From positions 124,001-188,000 of the forward strand of contig NZ_GL833118.1 in the NCBI RefSeq assembly GCF_000185145.2: 64,000 nucleotides of DNA, read 5' to 3'. The notes under the pieces were generated by a model, which did no database searches, was not told the DNA's origin, and saw only the letters and a program-made list of their open reading frames with translations. Position 1 is the stretch's first letter. Each line of letters begins with the position of its first letter. The stretch is from Hoylesella oralis ATCC 33269. GTDB taxonomy: Bacteria; Bacteroidota; Bacteroidia; Bacteroidales; Bacteroidaceae. Shown here piece by piece: positions 18,349-30,030 of the stretch. The translations under genes were made by a program, and so were the position numbers.

Positions 18349-20151
18349 ATGCAGGACATCAGAAACATTGCCATTATTGCACACGTTGATCACGGTAAAA
18401 CTACTTTAGTCGACAAGATGATGCTCGCCGGAAAGCTCTTCCGCGAAGGACAGGATAACAGCGCACAGGTATTAGACTCCAACGATTTGGAGCGCGAACG
18501 AGGCATAACCATTCTTTCCAAGAACGTTTCTATTAATTGGAAAGGCTCGAAGATCAATATTATAGACACGCCGGGGCACTCTGATTTCGGCGGTGAAGTG
18601 GAGCGTGTGCTCAATATGGCCGACGGTTGTATCCTCTTAGTGGATGCTTTCGAGGGCCCAATGCCGCAAACTCGCTTCGTTTTACAGAAAGCCTTACAGA
18701 TAGGATTGAAGCCTATTGTGGTGGTAAACAAGGTGGATAAGCCGAATTGCCGGCCCGAAGAAGTCTACGAAATGGTCTTCGACTTGATGTTCTCGCTCAA
18801 TGCAACGGAAGAACAGCTCGACTTTCCCGTTGTTTATGGTAGTGCCAAAAACGGATGGATGGCAGAAGATTGGAAAAAACCTACCGACAATATCGATTAT
18901 CTTCTCGATAAAATCATCGAAATAATCCCTGCTCCAAAGCAGATAGAGGGCAGTCCGCAAATGCTCATCACCTCGCTCGACTACTCTAATTATACGGGTA
19001 GAATTGCGGTAGGTCGCGTTCACCGAGGCACATTGCGTGATGGTATGAACGTTACGATATGCCACCGTGACGGCTCACAGGAGAAAACGAGAATTAAAGA
19101 ACTGCACACTTTCGAAGGTATGGGCCATGTGAAAACCGATCATGTGGACTCCGGGGACATTTGTGCGGTAATAGGACTCGATAAATTCGAGATAGGTGAT
19201 ACCATTTGCGATTACGAAAATCCCGAACCGTTGCCTCCTATAGCAATCGATGAGCCTACGATGAGCATGCTTTTCACTATTAACGATAGTCCTTTCTTCG
19301 GTAAGGAAGGTAAATTCTGCACAAGCCGTCATATCAACGAACGCTTGCAAAAAGAACTCGAAAAGAACCTTGCATTGCGTGTGCGCGCCTTCGACGACAG
19401 CACCGATAAGTGGATAGTAAGCGGCCGAGGTGTACTTCATCTCTCGGTGCTTATCGAGACCATGCGTCGCGAAGGCTATGAACTTCAGGTAGGTCAGCCG
19501 CAGGTAATCTACAAAGAGATAGACGGTGTGCGCTGCGAACCTATCGAAGAGCTCACCATCAACGTGCCCGAAGAGTTCTCAAGCAAGATGATCGACATGG
19601 TTACACGCCGCAAAGGCGAGATGACTTCTATGGAAAGTCAGGGCGAACGTGTGAACATCGAGTTCGATATACCCTCGCGCGGCATCATCGGTTTGCGTAC
19701 AAATGTGCTCACAGCCTCGCAGGGCGAAGCTATCATGGCACATCGTTTCAAAGAGTATCAGCCGTTCAAAGGCGAGATAACCCGCCGCACCAACGGTTCT
19801 ATGATTGCTTTGGAAACGGGCACTGCATACGCTTATTCGATCGATAAACTGCAGGATCGCGGTAAATTCTTTATCGATCCGGGCGAAGAAGTGTATGCCG
19901 GACAGGTGGTAGGAGAGCATGTTCACGACAACGACCTCGTGATCAACGTAACCAAGGCCAAGCAGCTAACCAACGTGCGGGCATCGGGTTCCGACGAAAA
20001 AGCCCGCGTTATTCCCAAAACTGTGATGAGTCTTGAAGAATGTCTCGAATACATTAAGGGCGATGAATACGTAGAAGTAACGCCGAAGAACATGCGTATG
20101 CGTAAGATCATCCTCGACCATTTGGAGCGCAAGCGTGCCGGCAAAGAGTAA
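18349..20151 (+). CDS. typA: Ribosome-associated translational GTPase TypA/BipA
   Basis: 600 residues, the normal length. It is an EF-G-like GTPase that helps 50S subunit assembly and stress adaptation. G1 is AHVDHGKTT (residues 11-19), the switch region has RERGITILSKN, G3 is DTPGHSDFGGEV, G4 is NKVDK; domains II, III, V and the TypA-specific C-terminal domain follow. Its last 50 bases reappear in altered form at 21797-21848, beyond the restriction–modification genes, so the 3' end of this gene marks an insertion boundary. Confidence 0.97.
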   Translation: MQDIRNIAIIAHVDHGKTTLVDKMMLAGKLFREGQDNSAQVLDSNDLERERGITILSKNVSINWKGSKINIIDTPGHSDFGGEVERVLNMADGCILLVDAFEGPMPQTRFVLQKALQIGLKPIVVVNKVDKPNCRPEEVYEMVFDLMFSLNATEEQLDFPVVYGSAKNGWMAEDWKKPTDNIDYLLDKIIEIIPAPKQIEGSPQMLITSLDYSNYTGRIAVGRVHRGTLRDGMNVTICHRDGSQEKTRIKELHTFEGMGHVKTDHVDSGDICAVIGLDKFEIGDTICDYENPEPLPPIAIDEPTMSMLFTINDSPFFGKEGKFCTSRHINERLQKELEKNLALRVRAFDDSTDKWIVSGRGVLHLSVLIETMRREGYELQVGQPQVIYKEIDGVRCEPIEELTINVPEEFSSKMIDMVTRRKGEMTSMESQGERVNIEFDIPSRGIIGLRTNVLTASQGEAIMAHRFKEYQPFKGEITRRTNGSMIALETGTAYAYSIDKLQDRGKFFIDPGEEVYAGQVVGEHVHDNDLVINVTKAKQLTNVRASGSDEKARVIPKTVMSLEECLEYIKGDEYVEVTPKNMRMRKIILDHLERKRAGKE

Positions 20152-20152
20152 A
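20101..20152 (+). repeat. First copy of the typA 3'-end direct repeat
   Basis: These 52 bases align without gaps to 21797-21848 with 43 identities (counted by hand). Here they encode the genuine TypA end RKIILDHLERKRAGKE and its stop. The two copies flank the restriction–modification genes. Confidence 0.9.
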
Positions 20153-20161
20153 TGTAAGATA

Positions 20162-20998
20162 ATGTTAGAGGAATATCTTAATAAAATTATCAATGCTAAT
20201 TGTATGGAAGTTCTGAAAAAACTTCCCAACAACAGCATTGATCTTGTTGTAACATCTCCGCCATATAATCTGAAGAACTCAACAGGAAATGGGATGAAAG
20301 ACGGGCGCGGAGGTAAATGGTCCAATGCAGCTCTTATAAAGGGATACGATAGCTATGATGACTGTATGCCGAATGATGAGTATGCAAAGTGGCAACACGA
20401 AGTATTATTGGAACTTGTTCGTGTTATCAAAGACGACGGAGCCATATTTTATAACCATAAATGGCGCGTACAGAACGGACTTATGCAGGATCGTCACGAT
20501 ATCGTTTATGATGTTCCGCTTCGCCAAATTATTATTTGGAAGCGTAAAGGAGGTATCAATTTTAATGCCGGTTATTTTCTTCCAACATACGAAGTTATCT
20601 ATTTTATCGCTAAAAAAGACTTTAAATTAGCTCCTCATAGCAATAATTATGGTGATGTATGGGAGATTATGCAAGAACAACGCAACGATCATCCGGCTCC
20701 GTTTCCTGTAGAACTTATCGATCGTATCATATCTTCAACTACCTCACAAATAATTTTAGATCCATTTATGGGATCGGGAACTACCGCTGTTGTTGCTGCT
20801 GGTTTAGGGCGGGATTTTATCGGTATAGAAAAATCACCAAAATATTGTGAGGTTGCTATGCAACGGCTTGAGAGGAATAAAATTAATTCGGAAGTTGCAA
20901 AATTCCATCAGCCTACCTTTTTTACAAAACCATTGGCCAAGAAATATAAACCTTCTAAAAGCATGAAAAATGAACAAAGTATTGAAATCGATTTCTAA
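20162..20998 (+). CDS. Type II DNA methyltransferase (N4-cytosine/N6-adenine, beta class)
   Basis: 278 residues from the ATG at 20162; an upstream in-frame start overlaps typA and is not needed. The catalytic motif IV is TSPPYN (residues 31-36) and the SAM-binding motif I is DPFMGSGTT (residues 200-208). The order IV before I puts it in the beta class. The partner endonuclease overlaps its 3' end by 29 bases and belongs to the MvaI/BcnI family, whose methyltransferases modify cytosine N4, so N4-methylcytosine is the likely product. The gene looks AT-richer than typA and uses AT-rich codons, consistent with recent transfer. Confidence 0.9.
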   Translation: MLEEYLNKIINANCMEVLKKLPNNSIDLVVTSPPYNLKNSTGNGMKDGRGGKWSNAALIKGYDSYDDCMPNDEYAKWQHEVLLELVRVIKDDGAIFYNHKWRVQNGLMQDRHDIVYDVPLRQIIIWKRKGGINFNAGYFLPTYEVIYFIAKKDFKLAPHSNNYGDVWEIMQEQRNDHPAPFPVELIDRIISSTTSQIILDPFMGSGTTAVVAAGLGRDFIGIEKSPKYCEVAMQRLERNKINSEVAKFHQPTFFTKPLAKKYKPSKSMKNEQSIEIDF

Positions 20999-21797
20999 AG
21001 AAGAACTAATTAACAGGTTTAATGAAATATATACTCAAGGCTGGATATTAAATCGACGCGGAAATAATGATGGAGCTGTAGGGAATGTTTTAGAGGATTT
21101 GCTTGGCATACCAGAAAACAATTTACCTATTCCAAATGCAGCCGAATGGGAATTGAAGGCACAGAGAGCGAATACTTCATCATTGCTGACGTTATTTCAC
21201 ATGGAACCATCACCGCGTGCATTCAAAGTTGTTCCGAATATCTTGTTACAAAAATATGGCTGGCCTTCTGCTGAGGCAGGTAAAAAATATCCTATTGATG
21301 AGAAATCTTTTAGAGCAACACTTAACGCTAAGAATTTTATTGATCGCGGTTTCAAAGTGAATGTAAATGATGAACAAAAAAGGGTTGAAATTGTTTTCGA
21401 CAGCACTAAAACAGCAGAACGGCACAATGAATGGATACGAACAGTAAAGAAACGTGTAGGGCATACCGATAATTTCGATATCGTTCCTTATTGGGGATTT
21501 GATGATTTATTTCATAAAGCCGGTATAAAATTAATGAATTGCTTTTATGTTCGTGCAGACGAAAAAAGAGAGTACGAAGGTCGTAAGCGCAAAAGTTACT
21601 TTCTCTATAATTATGTATTAAAACTTTCGCAATTCAATCAAAGTAAATTTATAGATGCCATTCGTCAGGGCAAAATATATATTGATTTTGATGCCCGTAC
21701 GGGCCATAACCACGGTACAAAGTTTCGCATGCATTATAACGATATACCTTTGTTATATAAAAACGCAGAAGTTATCATTGATAAAACATCCTTGTAA
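20970..21797 (+). CDS. MvaI/BcnI-family type II restriction endonuclease
   Basis: 275 residues. The N-terminal part follows the pattern of this family: RRGNNDGAVGNVLEDLLGI, then EWELKAQR with the E-x-K pair Glu61/Lys63 expected at a PD-(D/E)xK active site; Glu42 in the preceding helix may also contribute. Family members are known to cut CC(W/S)GG-type sites, often as monomers; the exact site here cannot be read from sequence. The gene starts 29 bases inside the methyltransferase gene, which helps keep expression of the two linked. Its stop codon directly touches the diverged typA tail copy. An Asp immediately ahead of the E-x-K is not obvious. Confidence 0.85.
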   Translation: MNKVLKSISKEELINRFNEIYTQGWILNRRGNNDGAVGNVLEDLLGIPENNLPIPNAAEWELKAQRANTSSLLTLFHMEPSPRAFKVVPNILLQKYGWPSAEAGKKYPIDEKSFRATLNAKNFIDRGFKVNVNDEQKRVEIVFDSTKTAERHNEWIRTVKKRVGHTDNFDIVPYWGFDDLFHKAGIKLMNCFYVRADEKREYEGRKRKSYFLYNYVLKLSQFNQSKFIDAIRQGKIYIDFDARTGHNHGTKFRMHYNDIPLLYKNAEVIIDKTSL

Positions 21798-21862: not shown

Positions 21863-22063
21863 ATATATTTAGTTGTTTTCTTATGCTGTTTTTCATGTCG
21901 GCTCATCATGGCATAAGTATATTTTTGAGTACCAGTAAGTTATGATGTGATAGCAACTGAAAGCATGGCAGAAGAGTTGCTGTCAGCGTATTTACAGAAG
22001 TTCTAAAACATCCGTAACCCATTAAAAGACGGTCTTTATGTTGTAAGGAGACCATCTCTTTAC

Positions 22064-22284: not shown

Positions 22285-22292
22285 TATTTTTG
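22285..22292 (+). promoter_or_regulatory. Candidate -7 box for the porphyrin operon
   Basis: TATTTTTG matches TAnnTTTG, 34 bp before the ATG at 22327. No Fur-like box was recognised. Confidence 0.45.
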
Positions 22293-22326: not shown

Positions 22327-24387
22327 ATGCTTTGTACTATTTTGCTGTTGGCTTCGTGCGCACTCGATGGAGGCGCCGGAACGGCAGATACCGCCGCTAT
22401 CAGGACTATGGGACTCGACGAGGTGACCGTTGTAGAGTTCAAACAGAACAGGCGCAACCTTGCTCCGTCGTCTGTTTCGACGGCCGATGCACGCTTTCTG
22501 AATAATCAAGAGATAACGAGTTTGAAAGAACTTACGGCCGTTATGCCCAATTTCTTTATACCCGATTACGGCTCAAGACAGAACACTCCCGTTTATATAC
22601 GTGGCATCGGAGCCAAGACAAAGGGCCCTGCAGTGGGCTTCTATGTAGATGGCGTGCCTCATTTTGAGAATTCTGCCTTCGATATAGATATGTTCGATGT
22701 GGAGTCGGTGGCCGTTTTACGCGGTCCGCAGGGTACGCTTTACGGGCGTAATGCCATCGGCGGTATCATCAACGTGCACACGTTGTCGCCGTTGTATCAC
22801 CAAGGTACGCGTCTTAAAGCGGGTTACGGCAGCAGGAACGATGTAGTTGCACAGTTCTCGCATTATATGAAATTCTCCGACAGATTGGGATTTTCCGCCG
22901 CCGGAGGGTATCATCATAACGACGGTTTCTTTCGTAATCTGTTCACAGGCAATAAGGCCGACGATATGAACGACGGCTTCGGGCGGCTCAACTTCGTGTG
23001 GGCACCGTCTGCACAGTGGACGCTCCGCCTTAACAGCATGCTCGACTATTCCGAACAAGGCGGCTATCCGTATGGAGCGTATAGCCGTACCACGGGCACC
23101 ACATCGCCTGTTAATTATAATAGGTATAGCTCTTATCGCCGCCTGATCTCCACTTCGGGCTTCAATGCGCGGTACGAAGGGCAGTCGTTCGGCTTCAATA
23201 GTCGAACTTCCTACCAGTTCATTAAAGATCATCAGGCCATCGATCAAGACTTCACCCCTAAGGATTTGTATTTTGTCATCAACGAATTGCGGCAGAATAT
23301 GGTAAGTCAAGAGTTCACATTCAAGTCGAATCATACCAGACGTTACCAATGGATATTCGGCATATTCGGCATGCTTCAGAACGTTAACAACACCCTTGAA
23401 ACGCAATATATCGCCAAGGATCAAGCGTTTCCTACGCATTATCGCATACCCGTTTATGCCTTTGCGCTCTATCATCAGTCGTCTTATAACATTTGGCGCG
23501 GCCTTTCGATAACGGCAGGGCTGCGTTTCGATTACGAATATGCCAATCACCGTTATCTTCGGCGCAGCTATCAACTAAGCACAAACGGCAATTGGATGGA
23601 TGTTAAAAGTAACGAGAGCTCCCTTCATTTCAGGCAACTAACGCCGAAATTCGGCCTTCAATACCTTACAGAAGTGCGAAATCTCTATTACATATCGGTT
23701 ACCCGCGGCTATAAGGCAGGCGGTTTCAACCAGTCGTTCCGAACAGACGACGAACGTACATACTCGCCCGAATACAACTGGAACTACGAAGTAGGGGCGA
23801 AACTCAACCTTCTGCGAGGCACGCTGACGGCAGAAACGGCGCTTTTTTATATAGACTGGCGCCATCAGCAGGTTAACCAAACCGTGCCGGGGATAGGGAA
23901 TGTGTTGCATAACGCAGGGCATTCCAGCAGTAAAGGGTTCGAATTGTCGCTCATGGCACGCCCTCTGTCGGGTTTAGAACTCCATTTAAGCTACGGATAT
24001 ACCTATTCTAAGTTCATTGAATATCGAAAGAGCGCAACCGTAGATTATTCCGGAAACAGGTTGCCGATGGTTCCGCGCAACACGTTGGCACTGAACGTGG
24101 CTTATACATGGCGGCCTGCTCGCGGTATCGTCGACAAATGGGTGCTCGGTACAGGCCTTACGGGCGTGGGAAAGATATATTGGGCCGAAGACAATGCCGT
24201 GGCACAAGACTTTTATACGTTGCTCAATGCCAAGATAAGTGCAACGAGCGGCAATTTTACATGGGAGGTGTGGGGCAAAAATCTTACCGATACGAAGTAT
24301 AATACCTACAGCTTTAAGGCGTCTGCCGACTATGCCCAGCTGGGCCGACCGGCACATTTCGGAACGTCTGTAGTAGTAAATTTCTGA
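22327..24387 (+). CDS. TonB-dependent outer-membrane receptor, likely for porphyrin or siderophore
   Basis: 686 residues. A plug domain with a TonB-box-like EVTVVEF near the N-terminus, IRGIGAKTKGPAVGFYVDGV and LRGPQGTLYGRNAIGGIINV, then a 22-strand barrel ending in an aromatic residue (VVVNF). An in-frame stop at 22318 fixes the start. The resulting leader, MLCTILLLASCALDGG, has a lipobox-like LASC but no basic residue, which is unusual. It is not SusC-like. It heads an operon with an MFS carrier and two late heme-synthesis enzymes, so the ligand is probably a tetrapyrrole such as coproporphyrin; this is inferred from context. Confidence 0.85.
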   Translation: MLCTILLLASCALDGGAGTADTAAIRTMGLDEVTVVEFKQNRRNLAPSSVSTADARFLNNQEITSLKELTAVMPNFFIPDYGSRQNTPVYIRGIGAKTKGPAVGFYVDGVPHFENSAFDIDMFDVESVAVLRGPQGTLYGRNAIGGIINVHTLSPLYHQGTRLKAGYGSRNDVVAQFSHYMKFSDRLGFSAAGGYHHNDGFFRNLFTGNKADDMNDGFGRLNFVWAPSAQWTLRLNSMLDYSEQGGYPYGAYSRTTGTTSPVNYNRYSSYRRLISTSGFNARYEGQSFGFNSRTSYQFIKDHQAIDQDFTPKDLYFVINELRQNMVSQEFTFKSNHTRRYQWIFGIFGMLQNVNNTLETQYIAKDQAFPTHYRIPVYAFALYHQSSYNIWRGLSITAGLRFDYEYANHRYLRRSYQLSTNGNWMDVKSNESSLHFRQLTPKFGLQYLTEVRNLYYISVTRGYKAGGFNQSFRTDDERTYSPEYNWNYEVGAKLNLLRGTLTAETALFYIDWRHQQVNQTVPGIGNVLHNAGHSSSKGFELSLMARPLSGLELHLSYGYTYSKFIEYRKSATVDYSGNRLPMVPRNTLALNVAYTWRPARGIVDKWVLGTGLTGVGKIYWAEDNAVAQDFYTLLNAKISATSGNFTWEVWGKNLTDTKYNTYSFKASADYAQLGRPAHFGTSVVVNF

Positions 24388-24392
24388 TACGG

Positions 24393-25628
24393 ATGAACGG
24401 TCTTTCGAAAATATCTGTACGCTCTAATGGCGGCGAAGTGCTTACTTTGGGCACTTTCTTTTGTTTGTATGTGGCACAGTCGGTACCTTCGAGCTTCTTA
24501 TCTACCGCTTTACAGGTGCTCATGCGCGAGAATAACTTCTCTTTATCTACCATCGGACTGTTACAGATGGTAAAACTACCGTGGATATTGAAGTTTCTAT
24601 GGGCGCCGCTGATAGACCGCAATTGCGTTACCGTGGCCCATTACAAGCGTTGCATCATCTCTTCGGAACTGGCTTATGCCGTTATTCTGCTTGTTATGGG
24701 CATGTTTCATATTGCCACCGATATCTATCTGATCATCGCATTGGTAATACTTTCGCTTGTTGCTTCGGGCACACAAGACATCGCAACCGATGCTCTGGCG
24801 GTATTATCTTTTACGAAACGCGATAAAAGCATGGTAAACAGCATGCAGTCTATGGGTGGTTTCGGCGGCACGCTTCTTGGTAGCGGTGTTCTTCTTATAG
24901 TGCTCCACCGTTACGGTTGGAGCGTTGTGTTGCCCTGTCTGTGTATTTTCGTGCTGCTTGCTCTTATTCCCTTGCTGTTCAACAAGCGGCTTACGATTGC
25001 GGAAAAAACTGCAACCGAACGTGCCAGAGCGGCCGATTTCTTGTGGTTCTTTGCCCGAAGAAGCATCTGGCGGCAGGTAGGTTTCCTCCTTATATATTAT
25101 GCCGGCCTTATCGGAATACTATCGATGCTGCGCCCGTATCTTGTAGATAACGGCTATACAATGAGAGATATCGGAATTATGAGTGGTATCTTGGGCACTT
25201 GCATGGCATGTGTATCGTCTTTAGGAGCGGGGTTTATCGTGCGTAGAATAGGCATCTATCGGGCGCGTATCTTATTTGCCGTGCTAACGCTTTGCACTAC
25301 GGTGTTCTTTCTTGCCCAGTCTTTCCTGCCCGTAAATACCGTTTTGCTCTGCTTGGGTATCGTTCTGTTGTGGGGAAGCTATGGGTTTGCCTCTGTTGTG
25401 GTCTATGTTTCGTCGATGAATTGCGTACGTTCGGGGCGCGAAGGAACAGATTTTACCGTGCAAATAGTGCTCACCCATACCAGCGGAATGCTGATGGCAG
25501 CAGTCGCCGGAGCACTGTCCGACCGTATCGGCTACCACGGATTGTTTGCGGCAGAGGTAGCCATAGCAGCACTGTCTTTGGTCTATGTACTTGCTATGTT
25601 CAAGAAAACGGAGGCGAAAAATGAATAA
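24393..25628 (+). CDS. MFS transporter, AmpG/RhtX-FptX-like
   Basis: 411 residues with about 12 membrane helices. The signature MVKLPWILKFLWAPLIDR and the loop ASGTQDIATDALAV place it in the AmpG-like branch of the major facilitator superfamily, which includes the RhtX/FptX single-protein siderophore importers. It starts 5 bp after the TonB receptor and its last 8 bases overlap hemN, so it is very likely the inner-membrane step of uptake for the same ligand. A muropeptide substrate (true AmpG) is the main alternative but does not fit the neighbours. Confidence 0.8.
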   Translation: MNGLSKISVRSNGGEVLTLGTFFCLYVAQSVPSSFLSTALQVLMRENNFSLSTIGLLQMVKLPWILKFLWAPLIDRNCVTVAHYKRCIISSELAYAVILLVMGMFHIATDIYLIIALVILSLVASGTQDIATDALAVLSFTKRDKSMVNSMQSMGGFGGTLLGSGVLLIVLHRYGWSVVLPCLCIFVLLALIPLLFNKRLTIAEKTATERARAADFLWFFARRSIWRQVGFLLIYYAGLIGILSMLRPYLVDNGYTMRDIGIMSGILGTCMACVSSLGAGFIVRRIGIYRARILFAVLTLCTTVFFLAQSFLPVNTVLLCLGIVLLWGSYGFASVVVYVSSMNCVRSGREGTDFTVQIVLTHTSGMLMAAVAGALSDRIGYHGLFAAEVAIAALSLVYVLAMFKKTEAKNE

Positions 25629-26985
25629 AGAACTGATCGAGAAATACAACATACCTGTGCCGAGATATACCAGTTATCCGCCGGCCAACTACTTCTACGA
25701 CCTTTCTGCTGCCGATTATCTTGCCGCAGTAGACGCATCTAACGCAGCTGCAAACAATCTGGTGTCGTTTTACCTCCACATCCCGTTCTGTTCAGACCTG
25801 TGCCATTATTGCGGTTGTAATTCATATTCCATGGGTAAAGATGGCATGTTGGAGCGATATGTGGCAGCTCTGCACAAAGAGATAGATATTATTGCCGCCC
25901 ATATACGGCCGGATAGGAGCATTTCACAGATACACTATGGCGGCGGAAGTCCCACTGCGTTGCCCATACATTATATACATGAGCTGAACGACCACATGCT
26001 CTCGCTGCTTCCGGTAATCGATCGGCCGGAAATAGCCATAGAGTGTCATCCGGGTTATCTTACCGCCTATGACTGGCAGAAGCTCATCGAGTGTGGTTTT
26101 ACACGCTATAGTCTGGGCATACAAGACTTTGACGAGCGCGTTCTGAAGGCTGTTAACCGGCGTCCGTCGTTACTTCCGATTGAGGAAATTCTCCATCTGT
26201 TGCGCTCATCCGGTGCAACTGTCAACCTTGATTTCCTGTTCGGATTACCATATCAAACGCCTCTGAGTTTCCAACATGCCATAGAAATGGGTGCCGAATT
26301 GCAACCTGAGCGCCTTGTAACGTTCAGTTACGGGCACGTGCCATGGGTTCATAAGCGGCAACTTATATTAGAGAAGTACGGTCTTCCTACAGGCCAGACT
26401 AAACAGGAGATGTATCAGCGGGCGGTAGAAGTGCTCTACGGGGCAGGTTATCGCAGTATCGGACTCGATCACTTCGTACTTCCCGACGACGAATTGAGTA
26501 TAGCTCTCGATACTAAGTGCCTGCATCGTAACTTTCAGGGCTACTGCACACAGCGCACAACGGGCCAAGTATATGCCTTTGGGGTAACGGGTATCAGTCA
26601 ATTGGGTTCTGCCTATGCGCAAAACGGTAGGGATATACCGGCTTATATCGATGAAATTGAGAGCGGCAGACTGAATGTCTGTCGCGGATATATCCTCAAC
26701 CGTCGCCAACAGATCGTGCGTGAAGTTATCGAAGCCATGATGTGTAACTATTATATTTCGTGGAGCGAAATAGCCCGAAGGCTGTCGCTGACGCCGAAAG
26801 AGGTAAAAGCTGCCGTGAATTACGATGAGGAACATCTGCGCAGGATGGCCACCGATGGCATTATAGATTATACGCCTGACGCTATTAGTATGACTTCCGA
26901 AGGCTCTCCTTTTGTAAGAAATGTGGTGGCAATACTCGATCCGTTGATGTTGAACACTACAAAGAAATTTTCTAAACCTATTTGA
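25621..26985 (+). CDS. hemN: Oxygen-independent coproporphyrinogen III oxidase HemN
   Basis: 454 residues from the ATG at 25621, which overlaps the MFS gene by 8 bases. A radical SAM enzyme that decarboxylates coproporphyrinogen III to protoporphyrinogen IX without oxygen. The cluster motif CxxxCxxCxC is Cys57, Cys61, Cys64, Cys66. Features that separate true HemN from HemW-like proteins are present: RYTSYPPA at the N-terminus, YGHVPWVHKRQ, GLDHFVLPDDEL, HRNFQGYCTQ and the C-terminal domain. It therefore should be a real heme-pathway enzyme. The earlier pathway genes are not seen nearby. Confidence 0.93.
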   Translation: MNKELIEKYNIPVPRYTSYPPANYFYDLSAADYLAAVDASNAAANNLVSFYLHIPFCSDLCHYCGCNSYSMGKDGMLERYVAALHKEIDIIAAHIRPDRSISQIHYGGGSPTALPIHYIHELNDHMLSLLPVIDRPEIAIECHPGYLTAYDWQKLIECGFTRYSLGIQDFDERVLKAVNRRPSLLPIEEILHLLRSSGATVNLDFLFGLPYQTPLSFQHAIEMGAELQPERLVTFSYGHVPWVHKRQLILEKYGLPTGQTKQEMYQRAVEVLYGAGYRSIGLDHFVLPDDELSIALDTKCLHRNFQGYCTQRTTGQVYAFGVTGISQLGSAYAQNGRDIPAYIDEIESGRLNVCRGYILNRRQQIVREVIEAMMCNYYISWSEIARRLSLTPKEVKAAVNYDEEHLRRMATDGIIDYTPDAISMTSEGSPFVRNVVAILDPLMLNTTKKFSKPI

Positions 26986-26990
26986 AAACG

Positions 26991-28370
26991 ATGGAGAAAC
27001 AATCTTTCAGAGAACGTGAAGCCGTGGTGATCGGGGCCGGAATCACCGGTCTGACTGCTGCATTCTATGCTCGTAAGAAGGGTAGGGATGTAGAAGTGCT
27101 CGAACGCGAAGACCGTATAGGTGGCCAAATTGGTACTTATCATGAAGACGGATATACTTTCGAGAGCGGTCCGAATACGGGTGTAGTGTCGTATCCCGAG
27201 GTGGCCGAACTCTTTGCAGACATGGGGGAAGCCTGTCGGTTGGAGCTTGCACGCGGCTCGTCCAAGCGTCGTCTTATCTGGAAAGGTACGCAATTCCACG
27301 CTTTGCCTGCCGGTCTAACGGCTGCATTTCGCACTCCGTTATTCACATGGCATGATAAAATCCGCATTATAGGAGAGCCCTTTCGCAAGAAGGGCGTCGA
27401 TCCGAATGAGACGGTAGGTGAGCTTACCGTTCGCAGATTGGGATATTCGTATCTTAGGTATGCCGTAGATCCGTTCTTGTCTGGCGTTTATGCGGGCGAT
27501 CCCATGCGACTTGTCACCCGTTATGCGTTGCCCAAACTGTACAATCTAGAACAAACATACGGCAGTTTCATACGGGGTGCCGTAGCTAAGGCTAAGGAAC
27601 AGAAGAGCAATCGCGACCGTTTGGCTACGAAAAAGGTGTTCTCTGCGCATGGCGGAATGGGCAATTTGGTGAATGCTTTGGGCGATGCGATAGGCGCAGA
27701 CCGTATAACGATCGGCGCCAGAGATATCGTTCTCGTGCCCGACAGCGGTCGTTGGCGGGTGGAATATACCGATGCCGGCGGCAACGCATGCTGCATACGT
27801 TGCGCCAAGGTGGTAACTACGTGCGGGGCATACAGCCTTCCGGCGCTGCTGCCTTTTGTGGATAAGGAGCGTATGAAGGCTGTGAACAATCTTTACTATG
27901 CCCCCATCGTGCAGGTGGGGGTGGGTGTTGCCGATACTGCAGGCGTCGGTTACAACGCTTTCGGCGGACTTGTACCCTCGTGCGAACGGCAGAATGTGCT
28001 CGGCATTCTTTATCCCTCGGCCTGCTTCGAGGGCCGTGCACCCGAGCGGGGTGCCGTGTTTTCGTTCTTTATGGGCGGTGTTCGTCGCCCCGATTTCGTA
28101 GATAAAAGCGACGAAGAATTGCTGACCATCGTCGATGATGCCCTGCACCGTATGCTCAAGTTGCCCGATATGGTGAAAGCAGATACCGTGCGTATTTTCC
28201 GTCATCGCCGTGCCATCCCGCAATATGAGGGCAATACAGGCGAGCGATATGCCGCTATCGACAGTATCGAACGGCAATACGGCGGACTTAGGATTGCCGG
28301 AAACATCCGCGGAGGCATAGGAATGGCAGACCGTATCAGGCAGGCTGTGGCCGTTGCCGCAAAGCTCTGA
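26991..28370 (+). CDS. hemY: FAD-dependent protoporphyrinogen oxidase (HemY/PPO type)
   Basis: 459 residues from the ATG at 26991; a TTG at 26982 overlapping hemN is less likely. It oxidises protoporphyrinogen IX to protoporphyrin IX. The N-terminal dinucleotide fold is VVIGAGITGLTAAFYA (residues 12-27), followed by the family's VLEREDRIGGQIGT and ESGPNTGV motifs; the C-terminal FAD-binding segment is GLRIAGNIRGGIGMADRI, the usual end of this family. It is the last gene of the receptor–MFS–hemN–hemY operon. A ferrochelatase would be needed to finish heme and is not in the window. Confidence 0.92.
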   Translation: MEKQSFREREAVVIGAGITGLTAAFYARKKGRDVEVLEREDRIGGQIGTYHEDGYTFESGPNTGVVSYPEVAELFADMGEACRLELARGSSKRRLIWKGTQFHALPAGLTAAFRTPLFTWHDKIRIIGEPFRKKGVDPNETVGELTVRRLGYSYLRYAVDPFLSGVYAGDPMRLVTRYALPKLYNLEQTYGSFIRGAVAKAKEQKSNRDRLATKKVFSAHGGMGNLVNALGDAIGADRITIGARDIVLVPDSGRWRVEYTDAGGNACCIRCAKVVTTCGAYSLPALLPFVDKERMKAVNNLYYAPIVQVGVGVADTAGVGYNAFGGLVPSCERQNVLGILYPSACFEGRAPERGAVFSFFMGGVRRPDFVDKSDEELLTIVDDALHRMLKLPDMVKADTVRIFRHRRAIPQYEGNTGERYAAIDSIERQYGGLRIAGNIRGGIGMADRIRQAVAVAAKL

Positions 28371-28451: not shown

Positions 28452-28928
28452 ATGATGGAGCAAAAAGACTTCGAGATATTCGTCTTACAGACGCGGCTTA
28501 AGCTGCTCAGGTCGGCCGAAATCCTGCTGAAGGATGCCGATGATGCAGAAGATGCGGTGCAGGACACGGTATTTAAACTGTGGGCCATGCGTAATCGGCT
28601 GGACGAATATCGGTCGGTAGAGGCTCTGTCGATGGTGGTGCTGCGCCGTATCTGTCTGAACCGTTTGCGCCGTGCAAATTTCGATTTGCCGCCGACTGTT
28701 CCCGATACGGAGCCCTCTGCAGAACAACGGCTCATAGGAAGAGAGGAGACAGAGCGTGTGGAAAAGCTCATTGCATTGCTGCCCGACAAGCAGCAGACCG
28801 TATTGAGAATGAAACATGCAGACGGACTTGAAACCGCTACAATAGCCCAACTCACGGGCATTAGCGAAGAGGCAGTGAGGCAAAATCTATCGCGTGCCCG
28901 CCGCAGGATATTAAAATATTTCGAATGA
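28452..28928 (+). CDS. ECF-type RNA polymerase sigma factor
   Basis: 158 residues. Region 2 has the DAEDAVQDTVFKLW motif for core binding and -10 recognition, and region 4 has ALLPDKQQTVLRMKHADGLETATIAQLTGISEEAVRQNLSRARRRI, a helix-turn-helix for -35 recognition. It overlaps the next gene by four bases (ATGA), and that gene has one membrane helix, so a sigma/anti-sigma pair is likely. The upstream region lacks a TAnnTTTG box, compatible with self-control. The signal sensed is unknown. Confidence 0.93.
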   Translation: MMEQKDFEIFVLQTRLKLLRSAEILLKDADDAEDAVQDTVFKLWAMRNRLDEYRSVEALSMVVLRRICLNRLRRANFDLPPTVPDTEPSAEQRLIGREETERVEKLIALLPDKQQTVLRMKHADGLETATIAQLTGISEEAVRQNLSRARRRILKYFE

Positions 28929-29395
28929 TGGAAAAAGAGAATATAGACAGAATGAGGTTCTTGGTGGAACGTTTTATGGATGGAGCCACCACGAATGGCG
29001 AAGAACAAGAGTTGTATGAGCTTTTCAGAAGCGACGGCGTGCCTGCCGACCTGCGCAAGTTGCGCCCCATGTTTGCATGGTATGCCGGCGGCATGCAGGC
29101 TCCGTTGCCCGTCCGCCGCCCGTTGAGGCGCCGCCTGTTTACGGTAATTGGCGTTGCAGCGGCGGTATTGCTGCTTTTCGGAGCCGGCTTAAGTATAAGG
29201 CGGCACATGGAGAACGAACGGATGTACGAGATATATGCCGGCAGTTACGTTATTAGAGGCGGCAAAAAGATTACCGATCTGCGGAAGATAATGCCCGAAC
29301 TGCAACGGAATGCCGACCGTGCGGAGCGCATCTGCAGCGAATTGAGCAATGGCACGTATGCTGTAAACAATGAAACCAATATTCCAACGATATGA
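28925..29395 (+). CDS. Single-pass membrane protein, probable anti-sigma factor
   Basis: 156 residues. An N-terminal cytoplasmic part with the short-helix pattern of anti-sigma domains (DRMRFLVERFMDGATTNGEEQELYELF), one membrane helix at about residues 71-90, and a periplasmic tail of about 65 residues. It overlaps the ECF gene by four bases and the next gene by four. Function is inferred from this position and topology; no catalytic motif is seen. Confidence 0.65.
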   Translation: MMEKENIDRMRFLVERFMDGATTNGEEQELYELFRSDGVPADLRKLRPMFAWYAGGMQAPLPVRRPLRRRLFTVIGVAAAVLLLFGAGLSIRRHMENERMYEIYAGSYVIRGGKKITDLRKIMPELQRNADRAERICSELSNGTYAVNNETNIPTI

Positions 29396-30030
29396 AAAAA
29401 CTGTTATTGATCCTCTTTGCTGCGGCCCTTGCCATGCCCATGTCGGCGCAGCAGCGCATAGGAAAAATAGTGAAAGAGCTCGAAAGCAAGGGTATTGAGG
29501 GTTCTTTGGTAATGAAACGGAACCGGCAGACGAAGAAGGTGTATATGCGTTCGCAGAGCTTTATATTTATCAGTAAAGAGAACAACTATGCCAACATGCT
29601 CGTAAAAGCCTTTAAAGACGAAAGCGAAAATGCCGACGAGTGTTACCTTAACCAGTCGGCTCAAACGCTGATGGGAGAGTTAGGTAAAGGCTTTACAATG
29701 GGCAATATGCGTAAATACACCTTGGTTTTTTCTGAAGGAGATGTACAAACAACGTATATACTCAAGGTAGAAACTAAAGACGTGCCCAACAAATACGTTA
29801 TTTTGCAGATTATTACACGTTACAAATCGGTGCCGGCCGACGAGCTTTCTCTTGATTTCAGTCCGGGCAGTATGAACGATGGAACGGAGATAGACCTAAG
29901 TTCTATCGGCGATATGTTGGCCGATATCGACCTTTCCGGTTGGAACTATGGCAAGAATATGCACATGGAAGATGTGAAAAAAAGTATAGAAAACCTGAAA
30001 AAACAACAGCAGAAGCGGCTGAAACGGTAA
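29392..30030 (+). CDS. Secreted protein of unknown function in the ECF operon
   Basis: 212 residues. A signal peptide (MKKLLLILFAAALAMPMSAQ) is followed by a mixed alpha/beta domain (residues about 20-150) and a Lys/Gln-rich C-terminus ending in KKQQQKRLKR. It resembles the small secreted DUF4252/DUF5024-type proteins that often follow ECF sigma/anti-sigma genes in Bacteroidales, but I cannot assign the family firmly. The ATGA overlap with the anti-sigma gene shows co-expression. It could be a periplasmic signal input or an output of the regulon. Confidence 0.7.
   Translation: MKKLLLILFAAALAMPMSAQQRIGKIVKELESKGIEGSLVMKRNRQTKKVYMRSQSFIFISKENNYANMLVKAFKDESENADECYLNQSAQTLMGELGKGFTMGNMRKYTLVFSEGDVQTTYILKVETKDVPNKYVILQIITRYKSVPADELSLDFSPGSMNDGTEIDLSSIGDMLADIDLSGWNYGKNMHMEDVKKSIENLKKQQQKRLKR

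What the first reader, a model, noticed from the sequence alone, without database searches (positions are those of the whole stretch)
22327..28370. Putative coproporphyrin-salvage operon: TonB receptor, MFS carrier, HemN, protoporphyrinogen oxidase
Four genes with spacing of 5, -8 and 5 bases couple an outer-membrane receptor and an RhtX/FptX-like inner-membrane carrier to the last-but-one and last-but-two steps of heme synthesis. HemN has all marks of a true coproporphyrinogen oxidase. The simplest reading is import of a tetrapyrrole intermediate (coproporphyrinogen or coproporphyrin made by other microbes or the host) followed by its conversion to protoporphyrin IX. This would be a route distinct from heme uptake by HmuR-type systems.
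Basis: partly seen in the sequence, partly recalled or inferred. Interest (0 to 1): 0.7.

Follow-up and report, generated by a model that had tools for sequence, protein, structure and literature searches.

The report
Heme-precursor import and finishing operon
A bacterium that seems unable to start making heme carries a four-gene unit that looks built to take in an unfinished heme precursor made by others and finish it, a pattern that recurs widely in its bacterial order.

Summary
In detail: a TonB-dependent receptor, an MFS carrier, a true HemN and a HemY-type protoporphyrinogen oxidase lie in one operon (gaps 5, -8, 5). In this genome (99% complete) no HemA, HemB, HemC, HemE or HemH was found.
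Comparative evidence favours precursor import. The carrier occurs in 40 of 295 Bacteroidales genomes, in 26 families. Among 242 without HemB, HemN occurs in 32 of 36 carriers and 1 of 206 non-carriers, and that one has HemE and HemA beside it. Of 119 partly overlapping carrier loci, 105 have HemN nearby, 31 have HemH, none has HemA or HemC. In 11 of 15 hand-picked de novo loci the hemA-to-hemE block leads into hemN; here receptor and carrier take that place.
Best reading: import of coproporphyrinogen III (or coproporphyrin III), which HemN and PPO turn into protoporphyrin IX. The ligand, its redox state and the missing ferrochelatase are unproven, and the transporter folds resemble siderophore receptors and AmpG. 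Ten paper searches showed no report of this operon.

The parts
22285..22292 (+). TATTTTTG, a match to the Bacteroidales -7 promoter element TAnnTTTG (consensus recalled), 34 bases before the receptor start codon; possible promoter
   Evidence: a second match lies at 21920, so chance is not excluded
22327..24387 (+). TonB-dependent outer-membrane receptor, 686 aa, proposed receptor for coproporphyrin(ogen)
   Evidence: Pfam Plug and barrel; model pLDDT 87.4, best structural match FyuA 4epa, Z 44.0, rmsd 2.2, 615 aligned
24393..25628 (+). MFS inner-membrane carrier, 411 aa, AmpG / RhtX-FptX type but below the cut-offs of both curated families
   Evidence: model pLDDT 90.5, Foldseek best match AmpG 8zbb
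25621..26985 (+). HemN, oxygen-independent coproporphyrinogen III oxidase, 454 aa (longest ORF starts at 25585; ATG 25621 preferred)
   Evidence: TIGR00538 over cut-off; 1olt E 4e-80 with CxxxCxxC kept
26991..28370 (+). HemY-type protoporphyrinogen oxidase, 459 aa (longest ORF starts with TTG 26982; ATG 26991 preferred)
   Evidence: TIGR00562 over cut-off; 2ivd E 4e-53

Best explanation
It is a precursor-salvage operon. The receptor (with TonB) takes a tetracarboxylic tetrapyrrole, most likely coproporphyrinogen III or coproporphyrin III released by other microbes or the host, across the outer membrane; the MFS carrier brings it into the cytoplasm; HemN decarboxylates coproporphyrinogen III to protoporphyrinogen IX; PPO oxidises that to protoporphyrin IX. 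Iron is then inserted by HemH where the genome has it (in 13 of the 28 sampled carriers with HemH it lies in the fetched neighbourhood); in this genome by an unidentified chelatase. Shown here: gene identity, operon structure, no detectable HemA/B/C/E/H, and the genome-wide and positional association. Inferred: ligand, direction of transport, redox state of the ligand, the last step.
For: (1) No HemB and no HemA, HemC, HemE in the genome, so HemN has no internally made substrate. (2) Over 295 Bacteroidales, 242 lack HemB: HemN in 32 of 36 carriers against 1 of 206 non-carriers; PPO 32 of 36 against 3 of 206; HemH 26 of 36 against 7 of 206 (inputs). The one HemN exception, G115, has HemN-PPO-HemE-HemA in a row, a biosynthetic-type cluster. 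(3) In 119 partly overlapping loci chosen for the carrier, nearby on the same strand: receptor 111, HemN 105, PPO 92, all four 83; anywhere in the locus: HemA 0, HemC 0, HemB 1, HemE 3, HemD-like 7, HemH 31. Entry is thus best placed at HemN. (4) Of 19 hand-picked other hem loci, 15 have HemA, C, D, B and L together and 14 of these HemE; HemN follows on the same strand in 11 of the 15, PPO in 9, HemH in 8. Receptor and carrier stand where that block stands. (5) HemN of importer operons does not form its own branch but mixes with HemN of other hem loci, and in three HemB-positive carriers (G073, G158, G319) the only HemN found is the one beside the carrier: ordinary HemN. (6) Over 52 receptors no plug His or Met is conserved to 85%; only H383 (96%), in a barrel strand, which fits an iron-free ligand. 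(7) P. [quoted passage not shown]
Against: No ligand data. HemH is missing in this genome and in 12 of 40 carriers in all, and a CobN-like protein is found in only one of those 12, this one, so the last step is unexplained. Four of 36 HemB-less carriers lack HemN (G092, G133, G217, G299; all four keep PPO) and four lack PPO (G079, G189, G327, G337). Four of 40 carriers have HemB, and carriers are not significantly poorer in HemB (4 of 40 against 49 of 255, p 0.19), so they are not all auxotrophs. In 4 of 15 de novo loci HemN does not follow the block (L161, L166, L172; L164 stops at a contig end). Receptor and carrier are closest to FyuA and AmpG, not to a porphyrin transporter. Genomes are related, so the p-values overstate independence, and 51 of the 295 sampled genomes are outside the tool's class of at least 90% complete and at most 5% contaminated. 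HemN needs the reduced porphyrinogen, which is unstable in air (general knowledge).
Confidence: 0.77

Rival explanations
1. Receptor and carrier import a ferric siderophore (yersiniabactin/pyochelin type) and are only co-transcribed with heme genes because both answer to iron or heme need.
For: Best sequence and structure neighbour of the receptor is FyuA; the carrier's best-scoring family is RhtX/FptX.
Against: Neither protein reaches a siderophore family cut-off. HemN and PPO in HemB-less genomes are almost confined to carriers, and this reading leaves HemN without substrate. Where HemN is not nearby the pair can sit beside HemD (L098, L092) and HemE (L092), again tetrapyrrole genes; L127 has neither that I could see.
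Confidence: 0.1
2. The imported compound is protoporphyrin(ogen) IX or heme, entering after HemN; HemN is incidental.
For: Four HemB-less carriers lack HemN but keep PPO; Bacteroides can use protoporphyrin IX (PMC4696147 and PMC6460266, passages).
Against: HemN is nearby in 105 of 119 loci and absent from 205 of 206 HemB-less non-carriers. This genome also has hmuY, a second receptor and hmuS for heme, and the window receptor shares only 24% over 370 residues with that second receptor.
Confidence: 0.07
3. The module handles a metal-coproporphyrin (for example zinc or copper) as a metal source, or exports porphyrins for detoxification.
For: Titles in the reference list of PMC10881299 treat coproporphyrin III as a possible copper-acquisition compound and describe a zinc form (passages).
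Against: Does not explain why HemN and PPO, and in part HemH, are in the operon; TonB-dependent receptors are importers by general knowledge.
Confidence: 0.04

Closest known systems
P. gingivalis porphyrin use with late genes HemN, HemG, HemH and the Hus hemophore
   Same: Heme auxotroph of the same order that keeps the late steps (PMC13227078, passages) and grows on coproporphyrin III (PMC6173696, passages)
   Different: [quoted passage not shown] the passages I saw name no importer for it. I could not test whether P. gingivalis has this operon.
Heme uptake Hmu (HmuY, HmuR, HmuS) of Bacteroidota
   Same: TonB-dependent uptake of a tetrapyrrole; present in this genome at another locus
   Different: No HmuY or CobN-like chelatase in the window operon; receptors share 24% over 370 residues; the cargo here would be iron-free and not yet protoporphyrin.
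FyuA/FptA receptors and RhtX/FptX-type MFS carriers (siderophore import)
   Same: Receptor plus single-protein MFS route; closest fold for the receptor
   Different: Below family cut-offs; tied to heme-synthesis genes.
De novo heme cluster of other Bacteroidales (hemA-C-D-B-L-E, hemN, PPO, often hemH)
   Same: Same HemN and PPO, often HemH
   Different: hemA to hemE replaced by receptor and carrier.
Coproporphyrin-fed Leucobacter (Sphingopyxis cross-feeding)
   Same: Coproporphyrins as growth factors between species (one sentence in PMC11139205)
   Different: Recipient without outer membrane (general knowledge); uptake mechanism not seen by me.

Membership tests
Oxygen-independent coproporphyrinogen III oxidase HemN (TIGR00538) | Score over curated cut-off; radical-SAM CxxxCxxC | tested here: met
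   394 against 325 bits; motif aligned with 1olt
Protoporphyrinogen oxidase HemY type (TIGR00562) | Score over curated cut-off, FAD-binding Rossmann domain | tested here: met
   232 against 97.85 bits; NAD_binding_8 and Amino_oxidase over cut-off
RhtX/FptX siderophore transporter (TIGR02718) | Score over curated cut-off 356.15 | tested here: not met
   165.1 bits
AmpG muropeptide transporter (TIGR00901) | Score over curated cut-off 350 | tested here: not met
   127.1 bits
TonB-dependent siderophore receptor (TIGR01783) | Score over curated cut-off 223.5 | tested here: not met
   174.6 bits
TonB-dependent heme/hemoglobin receptor (TIGR01785) | Score over curated cut-off 316.85 | tested here: not met
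   61.8 bits
Complete heme biosynthesis in this genome | HemA, HemB, HemC, HemE present | tested here: not met
   0 matches in G000 with controls ringing
Complete heme biosynthesis in this genome | HemD and HemL present | not tested
   no search was run for them in G000
Complete heme biosynthesis in this genome | Ferrochelatase HemH (PF00762) | tested here: not met
   0 in G000; 1 of 61 in its family sample; 8 of 14 control genomes rang
Coproporphyrin(ogen) importer | Binds and transports coproporphyrin(ogen) | not testable with these tools
   needs binding and growth assays
Hmu heme system | HmuY and CobN-like HmuS in the operon | tested here: not met
   Not among the window operon's genes; they are at another locus

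The most novel reading that the evidence does not exclude
A dedicated coproporphyrinogen importer, outer-membrane receptor plus MFS carrier, has more than once replaced the first half of heme synthesis (hemA to hemE) in Bacteroidales, turning an oxygen-sensitive intermediate into a shared nutrient of anaerobic communities, with a still unknown ferrochelatase finishing the job where HemH is missing.
Probability: 0.55. Interest if true: 0.85.

Novelty: new variant of a known kind. Interest (0 to 1): 0.68.

Why it matters
Host-associated Bacteroidales are widely heme auxotrophs (PMC6460266, passages), and E. coli feeds porphyrins to B. thetaiotaomicron; heme was among the compounds released (PMC4696147, passages), but the passages I saw do not say which intermediates are traded. 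A receptor-carrier pair for a heme precursor would give a genetic handle on that trade, explain why HemN and PPO survive in genomes that cannot make their substrate, and offer a candidate importer for the coproporphyrin III growth seen in P. gingivalis if that genome has it. It also sharpens the open question of which enzyme inserts iron in Bacteroidales without HemH.

Tried and rejected
HmuS as a general substitute for HemH: rejected, only 1 of 12 HemH-less carriers has a PF02514 match. A distinct salvage type of HemN: not supported, the tree mixes both kinds, 9 changes, at least 6 forced by starred branches (quick method, 35 of 72 inner branches open; 113 rows thinned to 75 at 68% identity, hits of 1150 bases or less dropped; one very long branch, L070). 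An upstream small membrane protein as a shared marker of importer and de novo operons: a profile search from one seed found only itself and a strict N-terminal pattern gave 8 of 102 and 1 of 15; a C-terminal PPP filter then gave 35 ORFs before the anchor genes and 12 elsewhere, so it is kept as a side observation, not as support. Depletion of HemB in carriers as such is not significant. Recalled, not used as evidence: the 1965 study by Caldwell and others of B. ruminicola (not held; seen only as a citation), which I recall as reporting use of coproporphyrinogen but not of coproporphyrin. Paper searches listed no report of this operon; subscription journals are mostly not in that library. Promoter and terminator scans gave no more than shuffles.

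Rows dropped before counts: four HemH matches under the family cut-off (G125, G249, G283, G341). A1 used 36 of 40 carriers, A2 31 receptors, A3 52 and A4 40 of those available. The 39 sample loci and the 80 named loci overlap in at least three contigs judged by equal length (75296, 36229 and 31838 bases), so 119 is not 119 different genomes. That the order searches saw one and the same set of 295 genomes is inferred from equal numbers and handles. The 19 comparison loci were picked by me from tables that showed HemB or HemN positions, so their gene order is no unbiased sample.

Full report
Observation. The four genes are there, on the + strand, with the spacing that was reported: receptor 22327-24387, carrier 24393-25628, HemN 25621-26985, PPO 26991-28370. 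HemN and PPO pass the curated equivalog cut-offs and align over nearly their full length with the solved coproporphyrinogen III oxidase 1olt and protoporphyrinogen oxidase 2ivd. Receptor and carrier belong to the TonB-dependent and MFS superfamilies but pass no NCBIfam cut-off among the matches listed.

Own genome. The window lies in a 2.84 Mb genome of 4 contigs, 99.18% complete. HemB (PF00490) and ferrochelatase (PF00762) were not found. A joined HemA+HemC+HemE query gave nothing in it or in 7 other carriers and found all three in 4 of 4 HemB-positive controls. HemD and HemL were not tested. There is one CobN-like protein, after HmuY and a second TonB receptor, that is an Hmu-type heme operon. 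So the window operon would be a second tetrapyrrole route beside heme uptake. The nearest named relative of the carrier is in Hoylesella pleuritidis, 74% (in which the own genome may be left out).

Distribution. Of 295 Bacteroidales genomes 40 have the MFS protein at E 1e-20 or better, in 31 of 184 genera and, by my count of the table, 26 families. What appears to be the same sample was searched for HemB (53 genomes), HemH (77, of them 73 over cut-off and used), HemN (78) and PPO (82). Among the 242 without HemB, HemN is in 32 of 36 carriers and 1 of 206 non-carriers; PPO in 32 of 36 and 3 of 206; HemH in 26 of 36 and 7 of 206. The single HemN exception, G115, has HemN, PPO, HemE and HemA in a row, and a genome of the same genus, G313, has HemB, so it may be a biosynthetic genome with a gap. 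In plain words: in this sample a genome without HemB keeps HemN almost only if it has this carrier. Against this, carriers as such are not significantly poorer in HemB (4 of 40 against 49 of 255). The genomes are related by descent, so the Fisher values are not true probabilities, but the spread over 26 families argues against a single inherited accident.

Neighbourhood. I read 39 sample loci and 80 named loci found with a carrier alignment alone. Receptor, HemN and PPO are nearby on the same strand in 36, 35 and 31 of 39, and in 75, 70 and 61 of 80; all four genes in 26 and 57. Some of the rest are contig ends; in L099, L102 and L109 HemN and PPO lie nearby on the other strand. Ferrochelatase is found in 31 of the 119 loci, HemA and HemC in none, HemB in one, HemE in three, HemD-like in seven. 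L098 and L092 lack HemN but have HemD beside the carrier, and L092 also HemE beside the receptor; L127 has the pair with no hem gene that I could see. The entry point, judged by what is kept and what is missing, is HemN.

De novo comparison. Nineteen further hem-gene loci of the order, picked by me, were read. Fifteen have HemA, C, D, B and L together and 14 of these HemE; HemN follows on the same strand in 11, PPO in 9 and HemH in 8 of the 15. In L158 the row is hemA-C-D-B-L-E-N, PPO, HemF, HemH. The importer operon has the same tail, with receptor and carrier in place of the head. HemN sequences of both kinds are mixed in the tree, and in three HemB-positive carriers the only HemN found lies beside the carrier, so it should serve the ordinary reaction there.

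Transporters. The receptor model (pLDDT 87.4) is closest to FyuA (Foldseek E 4e-43; Z 44.0, rmsd 2.2, 615 aligned), then to other siderophore, cobalamin and PQQ receptors; the heme receptor ChuA comes lower (Z about 33). Over 52 receptors no His or Met of the plug is conserved to 85%; H383 is at 96%, in a barrel strand. That fits an iron-free ligand but does not name it. The carrier model (pLDDT 90.5) is closest to AmpG. These data alone would suggest a siderophore; it is the company of HemN, PPO and HemH that points to a porphyrin.

Physiology from papers. In P. [quoted passage not shown] Bacteroides and Prevotella are said to lack HemH homologues and to insert iron by an unidentified ferrochelatase (PMC6460266, passages); the searches here show that some Bacteroidales do have HemH. 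E. coli but not its hemA mutant stimulates B. thetaiotaomicron through porphyrins (PMC4696147, passages). HmuS is described as a de-chelatase (PMC12583661, passages).

Judgement. Import of coproporphyrinogen III or coproporphyrin III with completion to protoporphyrin IX is the best reading (0.77). Weak points are the unproven ligand, the redox problem (HemN needs the reduced form), carriers without HemN or PPO, and the missing ferrochelatase in this and 11 other carriers, for which HmuS is not the general answer.

Noticed in passing
Upstream of the receptor (in L064 of the carrier) in 32 carrier loci, e.g. L047, L048, L133, L155, and of hemA in L158 and L175; not in the window: A small protein of about 110-150 aa with an N-terminal hydrophobic segment (often MFxxGxFxxxxPY) and a C-terminal PPP, mostly RPPP; no Pfam match for the one member tested. 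Found before importer and de novo heme operons, and before a second receptor in L153. Possibly a regulatory leader.
   Followed up: partly
L092 (Prevotella sp. RUI040) and L098 (Prevotellaceae SUG2085): Receptor and carrier without HemN nearby but with HemD after the carrier (opposite strand in L092), and HemE beside the receptor in L092: the importer may be coupled to other entry points.
   Followed up: partly
L137, L138, L149: A divergent ferrochelatase (about 25% to the usual one; Pfam-confirmed for L149) sits between HemN and PPO.
   Followed up: partly
window 20135-21797: DNA methylase and MvaI/BcnI-type restriction endonuclease upstream of the operon, a likely restriction-modification pair.
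   Followed up: no
window 28452-30030: ECF sigma factor over the cut-off of the GFO_1088/PG0214 model, then a 156 aa protein with no family match and a DUF5024 protein, directly downstream.
   Followed up: no
G000:C1:58000-77000 (L177 5669-14662): HmuY, a TonB receptor, a CobN-like chelatase, an unassigned 233 aa gene, a MotA/ExbB-family protein and a DUF2149 protein: an Hmu-type heme operon of this genome.
   Followed up: partly
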